The notes beneath the pieces were generated by a model that saw nothing but the letters and a program-made list of their open reading frames with translations, did not search any database and was not told where the DNA came from. Made by a program: the position numbers and the translations under genes. This document shows, one piece after another, positions 25,984-30,095 of a stretch of 64,000 nt of DNA. The DNA is from Streptomyces umbrinus (GTDB lineage Bacteria; Actinomycetota; Actinomycetes; Streptomycetales; Streptomycetaceae), in assembly GCF_030817415.1 (NCBI RefSeq), contig NZ_JAUSZI010000002.1, positions 4,340,001-4,404,000 on the forward strand, given 5' to 3'. The first letter of the stretch is position 1. Each line of letters begins with the position of its first letter.

Positions 25984-26193
25984 TCACCACCAAGTCGAGT
26001 CCAGTCGGCCCTCGATCGCTCTGAGGTTGGCCCGGGCGCAGCCGTCGCAGATGTAGTGGCGGGTGCCGTTCTCCACGGAGAAGGTCCAGGTGAGTGGCGG
26101 TTCCTCCGCCGTCGCGCCGCAGCGGGCGCACGCGATGGGCCGGGGCTCCGGGGTGGAGCCGCCGCTGTCACTGTCCCCGGGAAGACTCGTCAC
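25984..26193 (-). CDS. Small zinc-ribbon protein
   Basis: About 69 aa. Two Cys pairs, CARC and CDGC, about 29 residues apart form a likely zinc ribbon; the remainder includes WTFSVENGTRHYIC. GTG 26193 is preferred because TATCGT (26200-26205) ends 6 nt upstream, as in other leaderless genes here; an upstream in-frame start at 26235 exists. It is convergent with the ABC1 kinase, ending 17 bp away. No function is assigned; small ribbons of this kind may bind nucleic acid or protein. Confidence 0.65.
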   Translation of the reverse strand: MTSLPGDSDSGGSTPEPRPIACARCGATAEEPPLTWTFSVENGTRHYICDGCARANLRAIEGRLDSTWW

Positions 26194-26241
26194 GTGGTGA
26201 CGATAACTCCGGGATCCACGGTTGGTGAGGCACAACGCACC

Positions 26242-26273
26242 GCGGGGGCCGGTCCGTTCGGACCGGCCCCCGC
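26242..26273. terminator. Terminator of the wblC operon
   Basis: Perfect 15-bp arms GCGGGGGCCGGTCCG (26242-26256) and CGGACCGGCCCCCGC (26259-26273) with a two-base centre, downstream of the minus-strand wblC operon. No U tract. Confidence 0.85.
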
Positions 26274-26310
26274 ATCAGCTGTTGCTTCTGTCGCCGTTGC
26301 GAAAACGGCT

Positions 26311-26634
26311 CTACTGCATGACCGCCATGGCCAGTGCGCGGCGGGCGCGGCGTGAGGCGCGCTCGGCACGGCGCTGCATGCGGCGGGCGGTCACCAGGCG
26401 CATCGCCCGGCGTTCCTGCTCCGCCTCATGCAGCCGGTCGTGCATATGCGCACGAGCCAGGGCTTCTGGGATGAGTTGCATCTCTCGGGTCCTGTTCTGG
26501 CGCGTGTCGTTCGCGCCGGTGGAGGTGAAGTCTGGGGTCGCGGAGCCGGCGGGCTCGCTGGTGGACGGCTTCATCGGGACCTGCTTCTTGGGGTCGTGCG
26601 TCAGGGGGCGATCGATCGTTCCTAGGGTGTTCAT
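26311..26634 (-). CDS. Basic hypothetical protein coupled to wblC
   Basis: Protein of 107 aa with no recognised domain. The first half is polar and Thr/Ser/Pro-rich; the second half is a strongly basic, helix-forming Arg/Ala segment (RRMQRRAERASRRARRALAM). The ATG at 26634 overlaps the wblC stop as ATGA, and no separate ribosome site is present, so it is made by translational coupling. That places it in the antibiotic-inducible WblC unit. A nucleic-acid or ribosome contact is plausible from its charge but unproven. A later start at Met21 is possible. Confidence 0.7.
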   Translation of the reverse strand: MNTLGTIDRPLTHDPKKQVPMKPSTSEPAGSATPDFTSTGANDTRQNRTREMQLIPEALARAHMHDRLHEAEQERRAMRLVTARRMQRRAERASRRARRALAMAVMQ

Positions 26635-26999
26635 GCCGAAACCGGGTTCTTGCGCGGGCGGCCACGCGGCCGCTTCCGGGCGACAACGACACCCTGGACG
26701 AAGAGCTCGCCACCCCAGACGCCCCAGGGCTCACGCCGCTCCTTGGCGCCGGCGAGGCAGGCCTCGATCAGCGGGCAGGTGCGGCAGAGGGACTTGGCGT
26801 ACTCGACGTCGGCCGGCGACTCGGCGAAGAAGACCTCCGGGTCGTAGGAGCGGCAGGGGACGGGTACGCCGAGGTTCTCGATGGCGTCGTCGAGCGCGGT
26901 GAGCGCAGTGAGCGGGATCAAGGTGGAGTCCTCCGTGAGGCCGGGCGGGGGGATCGTTTCGGAAGGCGGTACGGACGGGGCGTGCGCTTCGAGTTGCAC
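26631..26999 (-). CDS. wblC: WhiB7-type Fe-S transcriptional regulator
   Basis: WhiB-family activator of 122 aa. The four Fe-S cysteines are C49, C72, C75 and C81; the GVWGG turn is 93-97. A C-terminal AT-hook RGRPRK (112-117) identifies the WhiB7/WblC subclass, which binds AT-rich DNA beside -35 boxes with the vegetative sigma factor and turns on intrinsic antibiotic resistance. GTG 26999 is selected: GAGGAA lies 8 nt upstream and it gives the expected length; the frame continues upstream through the leader. Control appears to be double: an AT-rich autoregulated-type promoter and an upstream ORF plus terminator, annotated separately. Confidence 0.95.
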   Translation of the reverse strand: MQLEAHAPSVPPSETIPPPGLTEDSTLIPLTALTALDDAIENLGVPVPCRSYDPEVFFAESPADVEYAKSLCRTCPLIEACLAGAKERREPWGVWGGELFVQGVVVARKRPRGRPRKNPVSA

Positions 27000-27116
27000 G
27001 GTTGGTCTTCCTCGTCTGGTCGTGCCGGCCGGGTCGGCCGGTTGGCGGCTGGTACCGGGTTCTTTTCTTGTCCCGAGGCCCCTTCGCTCTGTCGTCCCTG
27101 TTCGGGGACAAACAGA

Positions 27117-27151
27117 AGGGCCGCGGATCCCGGGTGGGGTTCCGCGGCCCT
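27117..27151 (-). terminator. Leader terminator (attenuator) of wblC
   Basis: On the minus strand a perfect 11-bp stem AGGGCCGCGGA/TCCGCGGCCCT (27141-27151 with 27117-27127) is followed by TCTGTTTGT, a U-rich tract. It lies after the upstream ORF and 118 nt before the wblC start. This is a classical intrinsic terminator inside a leader. Confidence 0.8.
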
Positions 27152-27161
27152 GAAGGCGCCG

Positions 27162-27180
27162 GCCTGATCGTCGATCAGGC
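27162..27180 (-). promoter_or_regulatory. Leader hairpin covering the upstream-ORF stop codon
   Basis: GCCTGATC/GATCAGGC with a 3-nt loop. The TGA stop of the 104-codon upstream ORF (27175-27177) is inside the stem, so a ribosome ending or stalled there would open it. It is a candidate switching element for the adjacent terminator. Confidence 0.6.
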
Positions 27181-27489
27181 TGGATCACTCCAGGGTTCAG
27201 GCCCACGGAAGGCCCACATCGTGTGGTGCGTCTGCTTGGCGGCTCCGGCACCGGTGGCCGCAAAGGCATAGGCCTGCGCCTGTGCCTCTACTGCTTCCAG
27301 TGCCTTCATCGGTCGCTCATTGCGCTCACGGACAGGGAGACCCGAGAGAGACACGGAGGACGCCGGCCGGACGGCAGGAATGCCGGACAGACCGGTGCCC
27401 AGGTTCGAGAAGCCGAGCAGGCACGTGGAGACGACCGAGCGATCGGTCAATTTGGCGGTGCTGACGGAGCTGCTGTTGATGCTGATCAC
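27175..27489 (-). CDS. 104-codon upstream ORF in the wblC leader
   Basis: An ORF of 104 codons starts at GTG 27489 behind a strong GAGGAGG site 8 nt upstream. The peptide (MISINSSSVSTAKLTDRSVV at the start, Ala-rich middle, WSDPA at the end) matches no family I know. It is translated before the leader terminator, and its stop codon sits in the hairpin at 27162-27180. WhiB7 genes are known to be controlled by leader translation and antitermination, so this is the likely sensing ORF: ribosome inhibition would change leader folding and allow read-through into wblC. The peptide sequence itself may not matter. Confidence 0.7.
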   Translation of the reverse strand: MISINSSSVSTAKLTDRSVVSTCLLGFSNLGTGLSGIPAVRPASSVSLSGLPVRERNERPMKALEAVEAQAQAYAFAATGAGAAKQTHHTMWAFRGPEPWSDPA

Positions 27490-27598
27490 TGGAATCGCCT
27501 CCTCTCGGCGTCTCTGGGACCGGGCGAGCCGGTCCGACGGTTATTAAGTACAGCACGGAACCAGGGCCTTCGAGAAGGCCGCCGTTTCCGTGCTTTAG

Positions 27599-27636
27599 AA
27601 CCTATGGGGATTGCTGGGGCATGCGCAAACTATTTT
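27599..27636 (-). promoter_or_regulatory. WblC-type promoter of the wblC transcript
   Basis: On the minus strand TTGCGC (27623-27628) and TAGGTT (27599-27604) are 18 bp apart. Directly upstream of the -35 is the A/T-rich AAAATAG (27630-27636), the signature of WhiB7-dependent promoters. Transcription should begin near 27592, giving a leader of about 590 nt. A further long stem (27552-27595, AGCACGGAA pairing with TTCCGTGCT) would form at its 5' end. Confidence 0.7.
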
Positions 27637-27651
27637 CTCGACGAGTTTGAA

Positions 27652-29856
27652 TCAGTCCTCGTCTGCACCATCCTCAAGTTCCTGACCTGCGCAGATGGCG
27701 AGTACGTCGGCCCCGTAGCGGTTGAGCTTGCGGGCGCGGACCCCCGGGATGCGGGACAGCTCGACCGGAGTGGACGGCACCGCTTCCGCGATGGCCATCA
27801 GGGTCTTGTCCGTGAAGACGCAGAAGTCCGGCTGCCCGCTGCGCTCCGCCTGGACCGCCCGCCAGTCGCGCAACCGCTCGTAGAGGCCTTCGTCCATGTC
27901 GGACGGGCAGTCCTCGCAGCGCATCAGTTTCATCTCGCCGGCCTCGTTGAGGGTGCGGCCGCAGACCCGGCAGCGGGCGGGGGTGCGGTTCGCCCGTCGG
28001 GTGACGCCCGGAGCGCTGCCGGGAGCGCCGCGCTCGATGCCGCCCGAGCCGAGGGGGCCTGCCGCGCCGCCGCGGTTCGCCGTGGTGACGGAGCCGGGGC
28101 GCAGTCCGTCGAGGAAGCGGCTGGGGCGCCGGTTGGGCCGGCCGCCGGGTGAGCGGGACAGCGCCCAGGAGACGGAGAGGTGCTCTCTGGCCCGGGTGAC
28201 GCCGACGTAGAGGAGGCGGCGCTCCTCCTCGATCTGTTCCTCGGTCTTCGCGTAGGTGATCGGCATCATGCCTTCGGCGACGCCGACCAGGAACACGACG
28301 TCCCACTCCAGGCCCTTGGCGGAGTGGAGGGAGGCCAGGGTGACGCCCTGGACGGTCGGGGCGTGCTGGGCGCCGGCGCGTTCGTCGAGTTCGGCCACGA
28401 GGTCGCCGAGGGTGGCGTCGGGCTTGGCGGCGGCGAAGTCCTGGGCCAGGTGGGCGAGGGCGGCGAGGGACTCCCAGCGCTCTCTGACGGCCCCGGAGCC
28501 CGCGGGGGGCTGGTGGGTCCAGCCGTCTCCTGAGAGGACGGCTCGCACCTGCGAGGGCAGGTCCGGGGCGTCGTCGAGGAGTGAGTCGTTGCCCCCGAAG
28601 CGGGCCGCACCGCGCAGGGCGTGGATGGCTCTCTTCACCTCGGGCCGGTCGAAGAAGCGCTCGGCTCCGCGCAGTTGGTAGGGCACCGCGACGTCGGCTA
28701 GGGCCTGTTCGTAGATCTCGGACTGCGAGTTCGTACGGAAGAGGATCGCGATCTCGCTCGCGGGGATGCCGGAGGCGATGAGGTCGCGGATGCGGCGGGC
28801 GGCTCCTTCGGCCTCGGCGGGCTCGTCGGTGTATTCGGCGTAGCCGGGTTCGGGGCCCGCGGTGCGCTGGGAGATCAGCTCCAGGCGGTGGTCGGCGGCG
28901 CGGCCGCGGGCCTGGGCGAGCAGGCCGTTGGCGAGGTGGACGACCTGGGGGGTGGAGCGGTAGTCCCGGACGAGTTTGACGACCGTGGCTCCGGGGTGGC
29001 GGGTGCGGAAGTCGAGGAGGTGGTCGGGGGTCGCGCCGGTGAAGGAGTAGATGGTCTGGCTGGCGTCGCCGACGACACAGAGGCTGTCGCGCTCGCCGAG
29101 CCACAGTTCGAGGAGGCGCTGCTGGAGGGGGCTGACGTCCTGGTACTCGTCGACCACGAAGTGCTGGTACTGGGCGCGGACCGCCTCGGCGATGTCGTGC
29201 TGGTCCTGGAGGATGGCGACGGTCAGCAGCAGGACGTCCTCGAAGTCGATGACGCTGCGGTCGCGCTTGAGATCCTCGTACGCGGCGTAGAGCTGGGCGA
29301 TCTCGGCGCGGTCGCGGGGGGCCTCGCGGCCGGCCTTGGCCGCGGCGGCGGCGTAGTCGGAGGGGACGGTCTGGGTGACCTTGGACCATTCGATCTCGGC
29401 GGTGACGTCCCGCAGCTCGCCGCGGTCGAGGCGCACGCGGCAGGTGGCCGCGGCGTCGGCGACGAGCTGGATCTTGCGGTCGACGATCCGCGGCAGGCTG
29501 CCTCCGACGGCTTTCGGCCAGAAGTACTGGAGCTGACGCAGGGCGGCGGAGTGGAAGGTGCGGGCCTGGACTCCGGAGGCGCCGAGCTGGCGGAGCCGGC
29601 CGCGCATCTCTCCGGCGGCGCGGTTGGTGAAGGTGACGGCGAGCACGCTGGAGGGCTGGAGGATCCCCGCGCGCACTCCGTAGGCGATGCGGTGGGTGAT
29701 GGCGCGGGTCTTGCCCGTACCGGCTCCCGCCAGCACGCACACCGGGCCGTGCAGGGCGGTGGCGACCTCGCGCTGCTCGGGGTCGAGCCCTTCCAGTACC
29801 GCGTCGGCCGTGTCAGGGGCCTGCGGGAAGAGGGTGGAATGCGTTGCTGCTGTCAC
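27652..29856 (-). CDS. uvrD2: UvrD2-type superfamily 1 DNA helicase
   Basis: Helicase of 734 aa. Motif I is AGAGTGKT in the N-terminal part; motif II is VVDEYQDVSP; motif III is VVGDASQTIYSF; motif V/VI appears as SLHSAKGLEWD and LLYVGVTRARE. After the motor come a tetracysteine segment (CRVC..CEDC, near 640-670) and a C-terminal HRDC domain (FTDKTLMAIAEAVPSTPVEL). This architecture defines actinobacterial UvrD2, a 3'-5' helicase of DNA repair. GTG 29856 is the most likely start; a longer version from 29952 is possible and no clear ribosome site decides. Divergent from mrx1 and from wblC's promoter end. Confidence 0.9.
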   Translation of the reverse strand: MTAATHSTLFPQAPDTADAVLEGLDPEQREVATALHGPVCVLAGAGTGKTRAITHRIAYGVRAGILQPSSVLAVTFTNRAAGEMRGRLRQLGASGVQARTFHSAALRQLQYFWPKAVGGSLPRIVDRKIQLVADAAATCRVRLDRGELRDVTAEIEWSKVTQTVPSDYAAAAAKAGREAPRDRAEIAQLYAAYEDLKRDRSVIDFEDVLLLTVAILQDQHDIAEAVRAQYQHFVVDEYQDVSPLQQRLLELWLGERDSLCVVGDASQTIYSFTGATPDHLLDFRTRHPGATVVKLVRDYRSTPQVVHLANGLLAQARGRAADHRLELISQRTAGPEPGYAEYTDEPAEAEGAARRIRDLIASGIPASEIAILFRTNSQSEIYEQALADVAVPYQLRGAERFFDRPEVKRAIHALRGAARFGGNDSLLDDAPDLPSQVRAVLSGDGWTHQPPAGSGAVRERWESLAALAHLAQDFAAAKPDATLGDLVAELDERAGAQHAPTVQGVTLASLHSAKGLEWDVVFLVGVAEGMMPITYAKTEEQIEEERRLLYVGVTRAREHLSVSWALSRSPGGRPNRRPSRFLDGLRPGSVTTANRGGAAGPLGSGGIERGAPGSAPGVTRRANRTPARCRVCGRTLNEAGEMKLMRCEDCPSDMDEGLYERLRDWRAVQAERSGQPDFCVFTDKTLMAIAEAVPSTPVELSRIPGVRARKLNRYGADVLAICAGQELEDGADED

Positions 29857-30095
29857 CCCGCCATGCTGCCAGGTCGGCGGAGACGGGTGCGCCGGTTGTC
29901 CACAGGGAGGCGCTCGCAGTCGTACTAATGCGGCAGTCGCTCGGTTCGGCACCAGCGTCAGCGCGCCTTTCGCCGGAGCCGTCCTCCGCCGTGTGGACCG
30001 GCTCTCTCCCCTGCCCCGTATGGGAATGGCGGCCAGGTCGCGTACGTTCCATCACTGCGAACACGCACTCCCTGCAGCGAAGGAGCATGAGAGAC

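What the first reader, a model, noticed from the sequence alone, without database searches (positions are those of the whole stretch)
26999..27636. wblC leader: upstream ORF, hairpin over its stop, terminator, and an AT-flanked promoter
The leader of about 590 nt carries a 104-codon ORF with a strong ribosome site, a hairpin containing its stop codon, and an intrinsic terminator before wblC. Together with AAAATAG at the -35 this gives both translation-sensing attenuation and autoactivation. The principle is known for WhiB7; the length and sequence of this ORF and its stop-in-stem geometry deserve attention.
Basis: partly seen in the sequence, partly recalled or inferred. Interest (0 to 1): 0.7.

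Follow-up and report, generated by a model that had tools for sequence, protein, structure and literature searches.

The report
Antibiotic-sensing leader of wblC/whiB7
The DNA ahead of a Streptomyces antibiotic-response gene carries a 104-codon reading frame whose translation most likely decides whether the gene's transcript is finished; this is a known kind of switch, and here the frame's amino-acid sequence appears hardly to matter while its being readable does.

Summary
On the minus strand, wblC (26999-26631) has a leader of about 592 nt: a WblC-type promoter, a 104-codon GTG-started uORF (27489-27175) with a strong Shine-Dalgarno, a hairpin containing its stop codon, and an intrinsic terminator (27150-27118). 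A detector for uORF plus terminator fires in 105 of 105 Streptomyces leaders and 3 of 105 of their reverse strands. Best explanation: ribosome-mediated transcription attenuation plus WblC autoactivation, already reported for whiB7/wblC (the primary paper could not be read). New detail: outside the antiterminator strand the uORF differs equally at all three codon positions (0.172, 0.162, 0.162 per site; dN/dS about 0.87), yet its indels favour multiples of three (59% against 13% in flanking leader). Selection seems to keep the frame open rather than keep the peptide. A covarying 5'-terminal hairpin was also found. Nothing was tested experimentally.

The parts
26631..26999 (-). wblC (WhiB7-type) coding sequence, GTG start; ends with RPRGRPRKN, an AT-hook-like motif (motif name recalled)
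27632..27637 (-). WblC box GAAAAT, 3 nt upstream of the -35
   Evidence: matches GAAAWY in PMC7157823; pattern in 105 of 105 Streptomyces leaders
27623..27628 (-). -35 TTGCGC
   Evidence: fits TKGMNN in PMC7157823
27599..27604 (-). -10 TAGGTT (TANNNT); +1 expected 7-8 nt downstream, 27592-27591
   Evidence: +1 not mapped here
27552..27594 (-). hairpin at the 5' end of the leader (begins about 2 nt before the predicted +1, within its uncertainty); role unknown, transcript stabiliser or polymerase pause guessed
   Evidence: fold; covariation
27498..27506 (-). Shine-Dalgarno GAGAGGAGG of the uORF
27175..27489 (-). uORF, 104 codons, GTG start, TGA stop 27177-27175
27238..27303 (-). Ala-rich segment of the uORF (codons 63-84, 11 of 22 Ala), upstream of the antiterminator strand
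   Evidence: translation; clustering test over genomes
27203..27210 (-). UUCCGUGG (in codons 94-96): antiterminator outer helix, 5' strand; an imperfect copy of the terminator's 3' arm
27188..27195 (-). CCCUGGAG (codons 99-101): antiterminator middle helix, 5' strand
27162..27180 (-). antiterminator inner hairpin GCCUGAUC/GAUCAGGC, contains the stop codon
27148..27155 (-). CUUCAGGG: 3' strand of the middle helix; its GGG is also the base of the terminator's 5' arm
27140..27147 (-). CCGCGGAA of the terminator's 5' arm, partner of UUCCGUGG in the antiterminator
27118..27150 (-). intrinsic terminator hairpin GGGCCGCGGAACCCCACCCGGGATCCGCGGCCC
   Evidence: (relatives)
27109..27117 (-). U-rich tract TTCTGTTTG

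Best explanation
This is a ribosome-mediated transcription attenuator. Transcription starts at a WblC-activated promoter and the uORF is translated. When ribosomes reach the stop codon promptly they cover the end of the uORF, so its last codons cannot pair with the terminator's 5' arm; the terminator forms and RNA polymerase stops before wblC. When translation is slow or blocked further upstream (ribosome-targeting drugs, amino-acid starvation), the uORF's last dozen codons plus the stop-codon hairpin fold into an antiterminator (27210-27203/27147-27140, 27195-27188/27155-27148, 27180-27173/27169-27162) that holds the terminator's 5' arm, and wblC is transcribed. WblC then activates its own promoter. 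Shown here: conservation, covariation and frame preservation. Inferred: translation of the uORF, ribosome position, read-through and autoactivation in this strain. The uORF probably senses by being a long stretch that must be read, not through a specific peptide.
For: Architecture in 105 of 105 Streptomyces leaders, controls 3 of 105; over all actinobacteria sampled 221 of 224 distinct loci have a hairpin the detector accepts and 210 of 224 also an SD-led ORF ending 8-50 nt before it. Antiterminator, Streptomyces (44 of 88 distinct segments): 97.6% of cells paired, slid versions at most 47.7%; 13 double-changed cells against 2.1 shuffled. Other actinobacteria (98 of 105 segments): 94 against 62.2 shuffled, slid at most 87; 69.2% paired, slid at most 51.7%. 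Terminator 43 against 16.0. Native uORF tails bind their own terminator region better than other loci's tails do (mean -26.3 against -22.5 kcal/mol; 85 of 100 beat the median swap, 23 of 100 beat 95% of swaps). Model folds of the stretch from 27219: the antiterminator is the best fold before the terminator's 3' arm is made, and the finished alternatives are nearly balanced (-59.5 against -58.8). Frame: indels in multiples of three 293 of 496 in the uORF body against 29 of 226 and 36 of 282 in flanking leader. An RNA model built only from loci outside the genus finds the window's element at E 8.2e-15 and all 80 of 80 named loci given to it, 79 Streptomyces and 1 Streptantibioticus. Papers, passages only: PMC10727445, PMC11550727, PMC12421871, PMC7157823.
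Against: No expression, ribosome-profiling or termination data for this strain. In Streptomyces the nascent leader's total folding energy is no lower than that of synonymous variants (mean z 0.08, 0 of 105 in the lowest 5%); elsewhere it is (mean z -1.82, 45 of 99). The count of pairs with a change on both sides does not exceed shuffles outside Streptomyces (12 against 10.5, 76 of 500 shuffles reach it; 13 against 12.9, 309 of 500), and for the terminator further pair types are reached by 59 of 500. Related sequences can beat these shuffles without any structure (tool's own warning). The outermost helix shows 1 double-changed cell in Streptomyces and 1 elsewhere because the terminator arm is nearly fixed. 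In 56 of 100 non-Streptomyces loci the tail-arm duplex is not in the best 5% of shuffled tails. 14 of 119 non-Streptomyces loci gave no terminator or no uORF, and some accepted hairpins there are weak.
Confidence: 0.9

Rival explanations
1. Arrest-peptide sensor: the nascent uORF peptide (conserved C-terminus MWAFRGPEPWSDPA here, WSPPV in many other genera) stalls the ribosome, as in Erm or TnaC leaders, and the stall sets the switch.
For: The C-terminal residues are the most conserved part of the uORF; dN/dS of the last 16 codons is 0.52.
Against: The conserved codons are fixed as nucleotides in Streptomyces: CCC 105 of 105, TGG 105 of 105, CCA 103 of 105, GAT 98 of 105, stop TGA 105 of 105. 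Other leaders keep the pairing while changing the residues, e.g. L133: PPRGP with CCTCGAG/CTCGAGG in place of AWSPP with CCTGGAG/CTCCAGG. The body shows no clear peptide constraint.
Confidence: 0.05
2. Amino-acid-specific attenuator: the Ala-rich segment makes the leader mainly an alanine-supply sensor.
For: Ala 17.4% in Streptomyces uORFs against 11.5% in the WblC stretch of the same loci, 17.3% against 11.8% elsewhere; Ala clusters more than in permuted uORFs in 75 of 105 Streptomyces, the richest 15 codons ending a median 25 codons before the stop, where a stall would leave the antiterminator strand free. Alanine starvation acts through WhiB7 in mycobacteria (Poulton 2024, not held; seen only as cited in passages).
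Against: Outside Streptomyces clustering is significant in only 12 of 99. The UvrD2-like protein in the window already has 14.3% Ala. [quoted passage not shown] The two views are compatible: alanine may be one input.
Confidence: 0.15
3. Rho-dependent polarity, or translational control of wblC, rather than intrinsic attenuation.
For: Untranslated leader stretches can be Rho targets (general knowledge); not examined here.
Against: A strong, covarying intrinsic terminator competes with a covarying antiterminator.
Confidence: 0.04
4. The ORF is a chance open frame in GC-rich DNA and only the terminator is functional.
For: No clear amino-acid constraint in its body; GC3 0.771 against 0.923 in the wblC core.
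Against: Indels favour multiples of three (59% against 13%), and the other two frames carry stops in 105 and 99 of 105 bodies; an SD-led start is found in 105 of 105; the control rate is 3 of 105.
Confidence: 0.02

Closest known systems
whiB7/wblC uORF attenuator of actinomycetes (Lee, Lee and Roe 2022, doi 10.1111/mmi.14834; not held; known here from passages of PMC10727445, PMC11550727, PMC12421871 and PMC13393426 that cite it)
   Same: Orthologous gene, uORF, intrinsic terminator, an antiterminator using sequence shared by uORF and terminator, autoactivated promoter.
   Different: Nothing functionally different was found. The details added here (frame-only selection, codon-level fixation, stop codon inside the antiterminator, 5' hairpin) could not be compared with that paper's own text.
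ilvB1 amino-acid attenuator of M. tuberculosis (passage of PMC13236596)
   Same: A ribosome at the stop codon blocks the antiterminator, so the terminator forms.
   Different: There a short uORF with four regulatory codons and a biosynthetic target; here a long uORF with little amino-acid constraint and a regulator of drug resistance.
Erm/TnaC-type arrest-peptide leaders (recalled)
   Same: Translation of a leader ORF in the presence of a drug or metabolite sets a downstream RNA structure.
   Different: Those depend on peptide sequence; here the peptide body is near neutral.

Membership tests
whiB7/wblC uORF attenuator | lies directly upstream of a WblC/WhiB7 gene | tested here: met
whiB7/wblC uORF attenuator | SD-led uORF ending just before an intrinsic terminator | tested here: met
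whiB7/wblC uORF attenuator | antiterminator formed by sequences shared by uORF and terminator | tested here: met
   structure prediction and covariation only
whiB7/wblC uORF attenuator | promoter with a WblC box 3 nt upstream of the -35 | tested here: met
whiB7/wblC uORF attenuator | antibiotic- or starvation-dependent read-through | not testable with these tools
   needs a reporter or RNA data
Arrest-peptide leader (Erm/TnaC type) | peptide-level selection on an arrest motif | tested here: not met
Amino-acid attenuator (trp/ilv type) | cluster of codons for the sensed amino acid before the antiterminator strand | tested here: inconclusive
   Ala cluster in 75 of 105 Streptomyces but 12 of 99 others
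Any Rfam 15 family | match at E up to 1 in window 26000-28500 | tested here: not met

The most novel reading that the evidence does not exclude
The uORF is a peptide-blind antenna: about 88 codons maintained only as an open, translated stretch, so that a slow ribosome anywhere along it leaves the antiterminator free; the conserved C-terminal 'peptide' is a shadow of an RNA strand that imitates the terminator's 3' arm. Length, not sequence, would set sensitivity to many unrelated translation inhibitors. A conserved 5' hairpin would add a further layer, by stabilising the leader or timing the polymerase.
Probability: 0.55. Interest if true: 0.5.

Novelty: new member of a known kind. Interest (0 to 1): 0.35.

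Why it matters
WblC/WhiB7 controls intrinsic resistance to ribosome-targeting antibiotics in actinomycetes. If its uORF is read as a length of translated RNA rather than as a peptide, that would explain how one leader responds to chemically unrelated drugs and to starvation, and it gives a simple prediction: recoding the body should not matter, shortening it should. The leader matched no Rfam family. A model built here has a match at E up to 0.01 in 122 of 148 sampled genomes of the class; that number includes the genomes the model was built from and some weak hits that are not at wblC.

Tried and rejected
Considered and rejected: an arrest peptide based on the C-terminal WSPPV/PWSDPA motif, dropped once codons and compensating changes pointed to RNA constraint. 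A second use of the element elsewhere: of the ten further own-genome matches at E up to 10 (one is the same hairpin on the other strand), I read the gene context of three (33.8, 31.8 and 28.6 bits); each lies at the 3' end of an ordinary gene and looks like a plain terminator. Eleven non-wblC hits from other genomes were fetched and only read by eye; I recognised no uORF-plus-terminator leader, but made no systematic test. An early reading of the antiterminator as GGGCCUGAA/UUCAGGGCC was dropped because the CTC codon at position -8 (45 of 105) breaks it; CCCUGGAG/CUUCAGGG pairs in nearly all (99.4% of cells). A strict Watson-Crick test of the outer strand against two terminator types was not informative: 80 of 104 Streptomyces leaders with the common arm have the version that pairs through G-U. 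The 'TERM forced' energy came from a mis-registered pairing and is not used. Whether uORF length itself is under selection was not tested.

Rows dropped: L112, L114 and L116 (duplicate genomes). Of the 105 non-Streptomyces segments with a uORF, seven (L188, L210, L218, L223, L230, L231, L233) were left out of alignment A2 by eye because terminator or uORF looked atypical; L188, L210, L223, L230, L231 and L233 were left out, and all of these but L223 out. A1 holds every second one of 88 distinct Streptomyces segments; A4 holds the 87 distinct 5' segments of 105 genomes. Codon-selection tests used 2696 and 1510 of 5460 genome pairs, chosen by identity; the indel count used 97 pairs, each genome with the most similar of 40 random others. 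The pairs are not independent.

Full report
WHAT IS THERE. wblC lies on the minus strand at 26999-26631. Upstream are, in order of transcription, GAAAAT (27637-27632), three bases, TTGCGC (27628-27623), an 18-nt spacer, TAGGTT (27604-27599), a 5' hairpin (27594-27552), GAGAGGAGG (27506-27498), a 104-codon GTG-started ORF ending in TGA (27489-27175), a hairpin that contains that stop, and a terminator hairpin (27150-27118) with a U-rich tract. Passages of PMC7157823 give GAAAWY 3 bp upstream of the -35, TKGMNN, 16-19 bp, TANNNT, and most start sites 7 or 8 bp further on, for WblC-activated promoters of S. coelicolor; this promoter fits each sequence item.

IS IT MORE THAN CHANCE. Each of 101 genus genomes has a WblC match; with four more of the genus that gives 105 genomes. 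The uORF is found by sequence in 108 of 108 loci, three of them duplicates. A detector blind to peptide sequence finds terminator plus SD-led ORF in 105 of 105 leaders, 3 of 105 reverse strands and 3 of 105 shuffles. The promoter pattern is in 105 of 105 Streptomyces leaders, 53 of 105 others and 1 of 4200 shuffles. In 119 further actinobacterial loci, 116 have a hairpin the detector accepts (a few are weak, e.g. L220, L227, L229) and 105 also such a uORF.

THE ANTITERMINATOR. The uORF's last codons (UUCCGUGG, then CCCUGGAG) and the stop-codon hairpin (GCCUGAUC/GAUCAGGC) can make one long helix with CUUCAGGGCCGCGGAA, the terminator's 5' arm and the bases before it. UUCCGUGG is in effect an imperfect copy of the terminator's 3' arm. 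In 44 Streptomyces segments 97.6% of cells pair, with 13 double-sided changes against 2.1 in shuffles, 12 of the 13 in the stop-codon hairpin. In 98 other segments the middle and inner helices have 93 double-sided changes against 57.5 shuffled and at most 74 slid; with the outer helix 94 against 62.2 and at most 87 slid, and sliding lowers pairing from 69.2% to 51.7% or less. The terminator itself covaries (43 against 16.0). Tails bind their own terminator regions better than other loci's tails do: 85 of 100 beat the median swap, 23 of 100 beat 95% of swaps; against shuffled tails 44 of 100, and 99 of 105 in Streptomyces, are in the best 5%. In minimum-energy folds of the nascent RNA the stop codon is enclosed by a helix reaching the terminator arm in 105 of 105 Streptomyces and 99 of 99 other loci, and itself has a paired base in 105 of 105 and 71 of 99; no shuffled control was made for that count.

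RESULTS THAT DO NOT HELP. In Streptomyces, folding energy is not lower than for synonymous variants (0 of 105 in the lowest 5%; 45 of 99 elsewhere). Outside Streptomyces the number of pairs with a change on both sides is no higher than in shuffles (12 against 10.5; 13 against 12.9), although the number of changed cells is. The outermost helix has almost no double-sided changes. Shuffles ignore relatedness. Rfam has no match, so no outside model supports the fold; model R1 was made here. It does recognise leaders not used to build it: the window at 74.6 bits and 80 of 80 named loci on the coding strand at 61.8 bits or more. Those 80 are the best kept of more than 514 relatives found, and several are the same genomes as unnamed ones above. 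R1 also gives 76 weak hits (31.5 bits or less) on the opposite strand of the same loci, as expected for a palindromic terminator.

PEPTIDE OR RNA. The C-terminal residues look conserved (WSPPV in many other loci, PWSDPA in Streptomyces), which first suggested an arrest peptide. But the codons themselves are fixed, and leaders with another helix sequence keep the pairing while the residues change. Upstream of this strand, differences per site are 0.172, 0.162 and 0.162 at codon positions 1, 2 and 3, against 0.010, 0.001 and 0.160 in the wblC core; dN/dS is 0.87 in frame (0.80-0.91 in subsamples) and 0.84 and 0.96 in the two wrong frames. By ten-codon windows it runs from 3.51 at the start, where synonymous differences are few, through 0.48-0.71 in codon windows 40-79, to 1.66 just after, so a weak constraint on part of the second half is not excluded. 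Yet indels are multiples of three in 293 of 496 cases, against 29 of 226 before the uORF and 36 of 282 after the terminator. Selection thus seems to keep a translatable frame of about 105 codons but hardly its meaning.

HOW IT MOST LIKELY WORKS. A ribosome that arrives at the stop covers most of the antiterminator's 5' strand; with 28 nt around the stop blocked in the model, the antiterminator cannot form and the terminator does (the first half follows from the blocking itself). A ribosome held back leaves the strand free, and in the model the antiterminator is the favoured fold before the terminator's 3' arm is made. The finished alternatives differ by only 0.7 kcal/mol, so order of folding and ribosome timing would decide. 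WblC made by read-through then raises initiation at its own promoter. Ribosome position, read-through and autoactivation are inferred. Passages of PMC10727445 and PMC11550727 state the same mechanism for whiB7/wblC, citing Lee, Lee and Roe 2022, which could not be read; a passage of PMC12421871 says the same of WblC in S. coelicolor.

ADDITIONS. The Ala-rich stretch lies a median 25 codons before the stop in Streptomyces and is more clustered than in permuted uORFs in 75 of 105, but in only 12 of 99 other loci; this suits reports of alanine starvation acting through WhiB7 but does not prove sensing here. A 5'-terminal hairpin in Streptomyces leaders covaries: 66 double-changed cells against 30.8 shuffled and at most 30 slid, 82.7% paired against at most 49.0% slid; the number of pairs with a change on both sides is less telling (10; 40 of 500 shuffles and one slid version, with 12, reach it). 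Its role is unknown. On what is in print: the passages read did not mention such a hairpin or frame-only selection on this uORF, and the capped listings of searches showed no title on either; none of these searches was aimed at the hairpin, and the key paper is not held, so no claim of priority is made.

VERDICT. A real, well-conserved and already understood kind of regulator, with a clear structural and evolutionary account of this copy. Interest is moderate to low as a discovery; the frame-without-peptide result is its most useful part.

Noticed in passing
window 27552-27594 (-): A hairpin at the 5' end of the predicted wblC transcript is conserved in Streptomyces with compensating changes, and TGTACT follows it in 81 of 87 distinct sequences.
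   Followed up: partly
L094 (an unnamed Streptomyces leader): Both terminator arms have changed (GCGAAACCC/GGGTTTCGC) and the uORF strand that pairs with the 5' arm carries a matching change at one pair.
   Followed up: partly
L169, L195, L199 and L209 (unnamed non-Streptomyces genomes): Short uORFs of 43 codons ending SPAWSPPQ or SPVWSPPQ, next to GGCCACGG-type terminators.
   Followed up: no
window 27652-29952 (-): A helicase-like gene (UvrD2-like by recalled sequence features) ends just upstream of the wblC promoter.
   Followed up: no
own genome, C2:8153582-8153679, 5819762-5819858 and 6650904-6651004: Weak hits of the leader model are GC-rich terminators at the 3' ends of ordinary genes; by recalled sequence features a transglycosylase-like, a purD-like and an inorganic pyrophosphatase-like gene.
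   Followed up: partly
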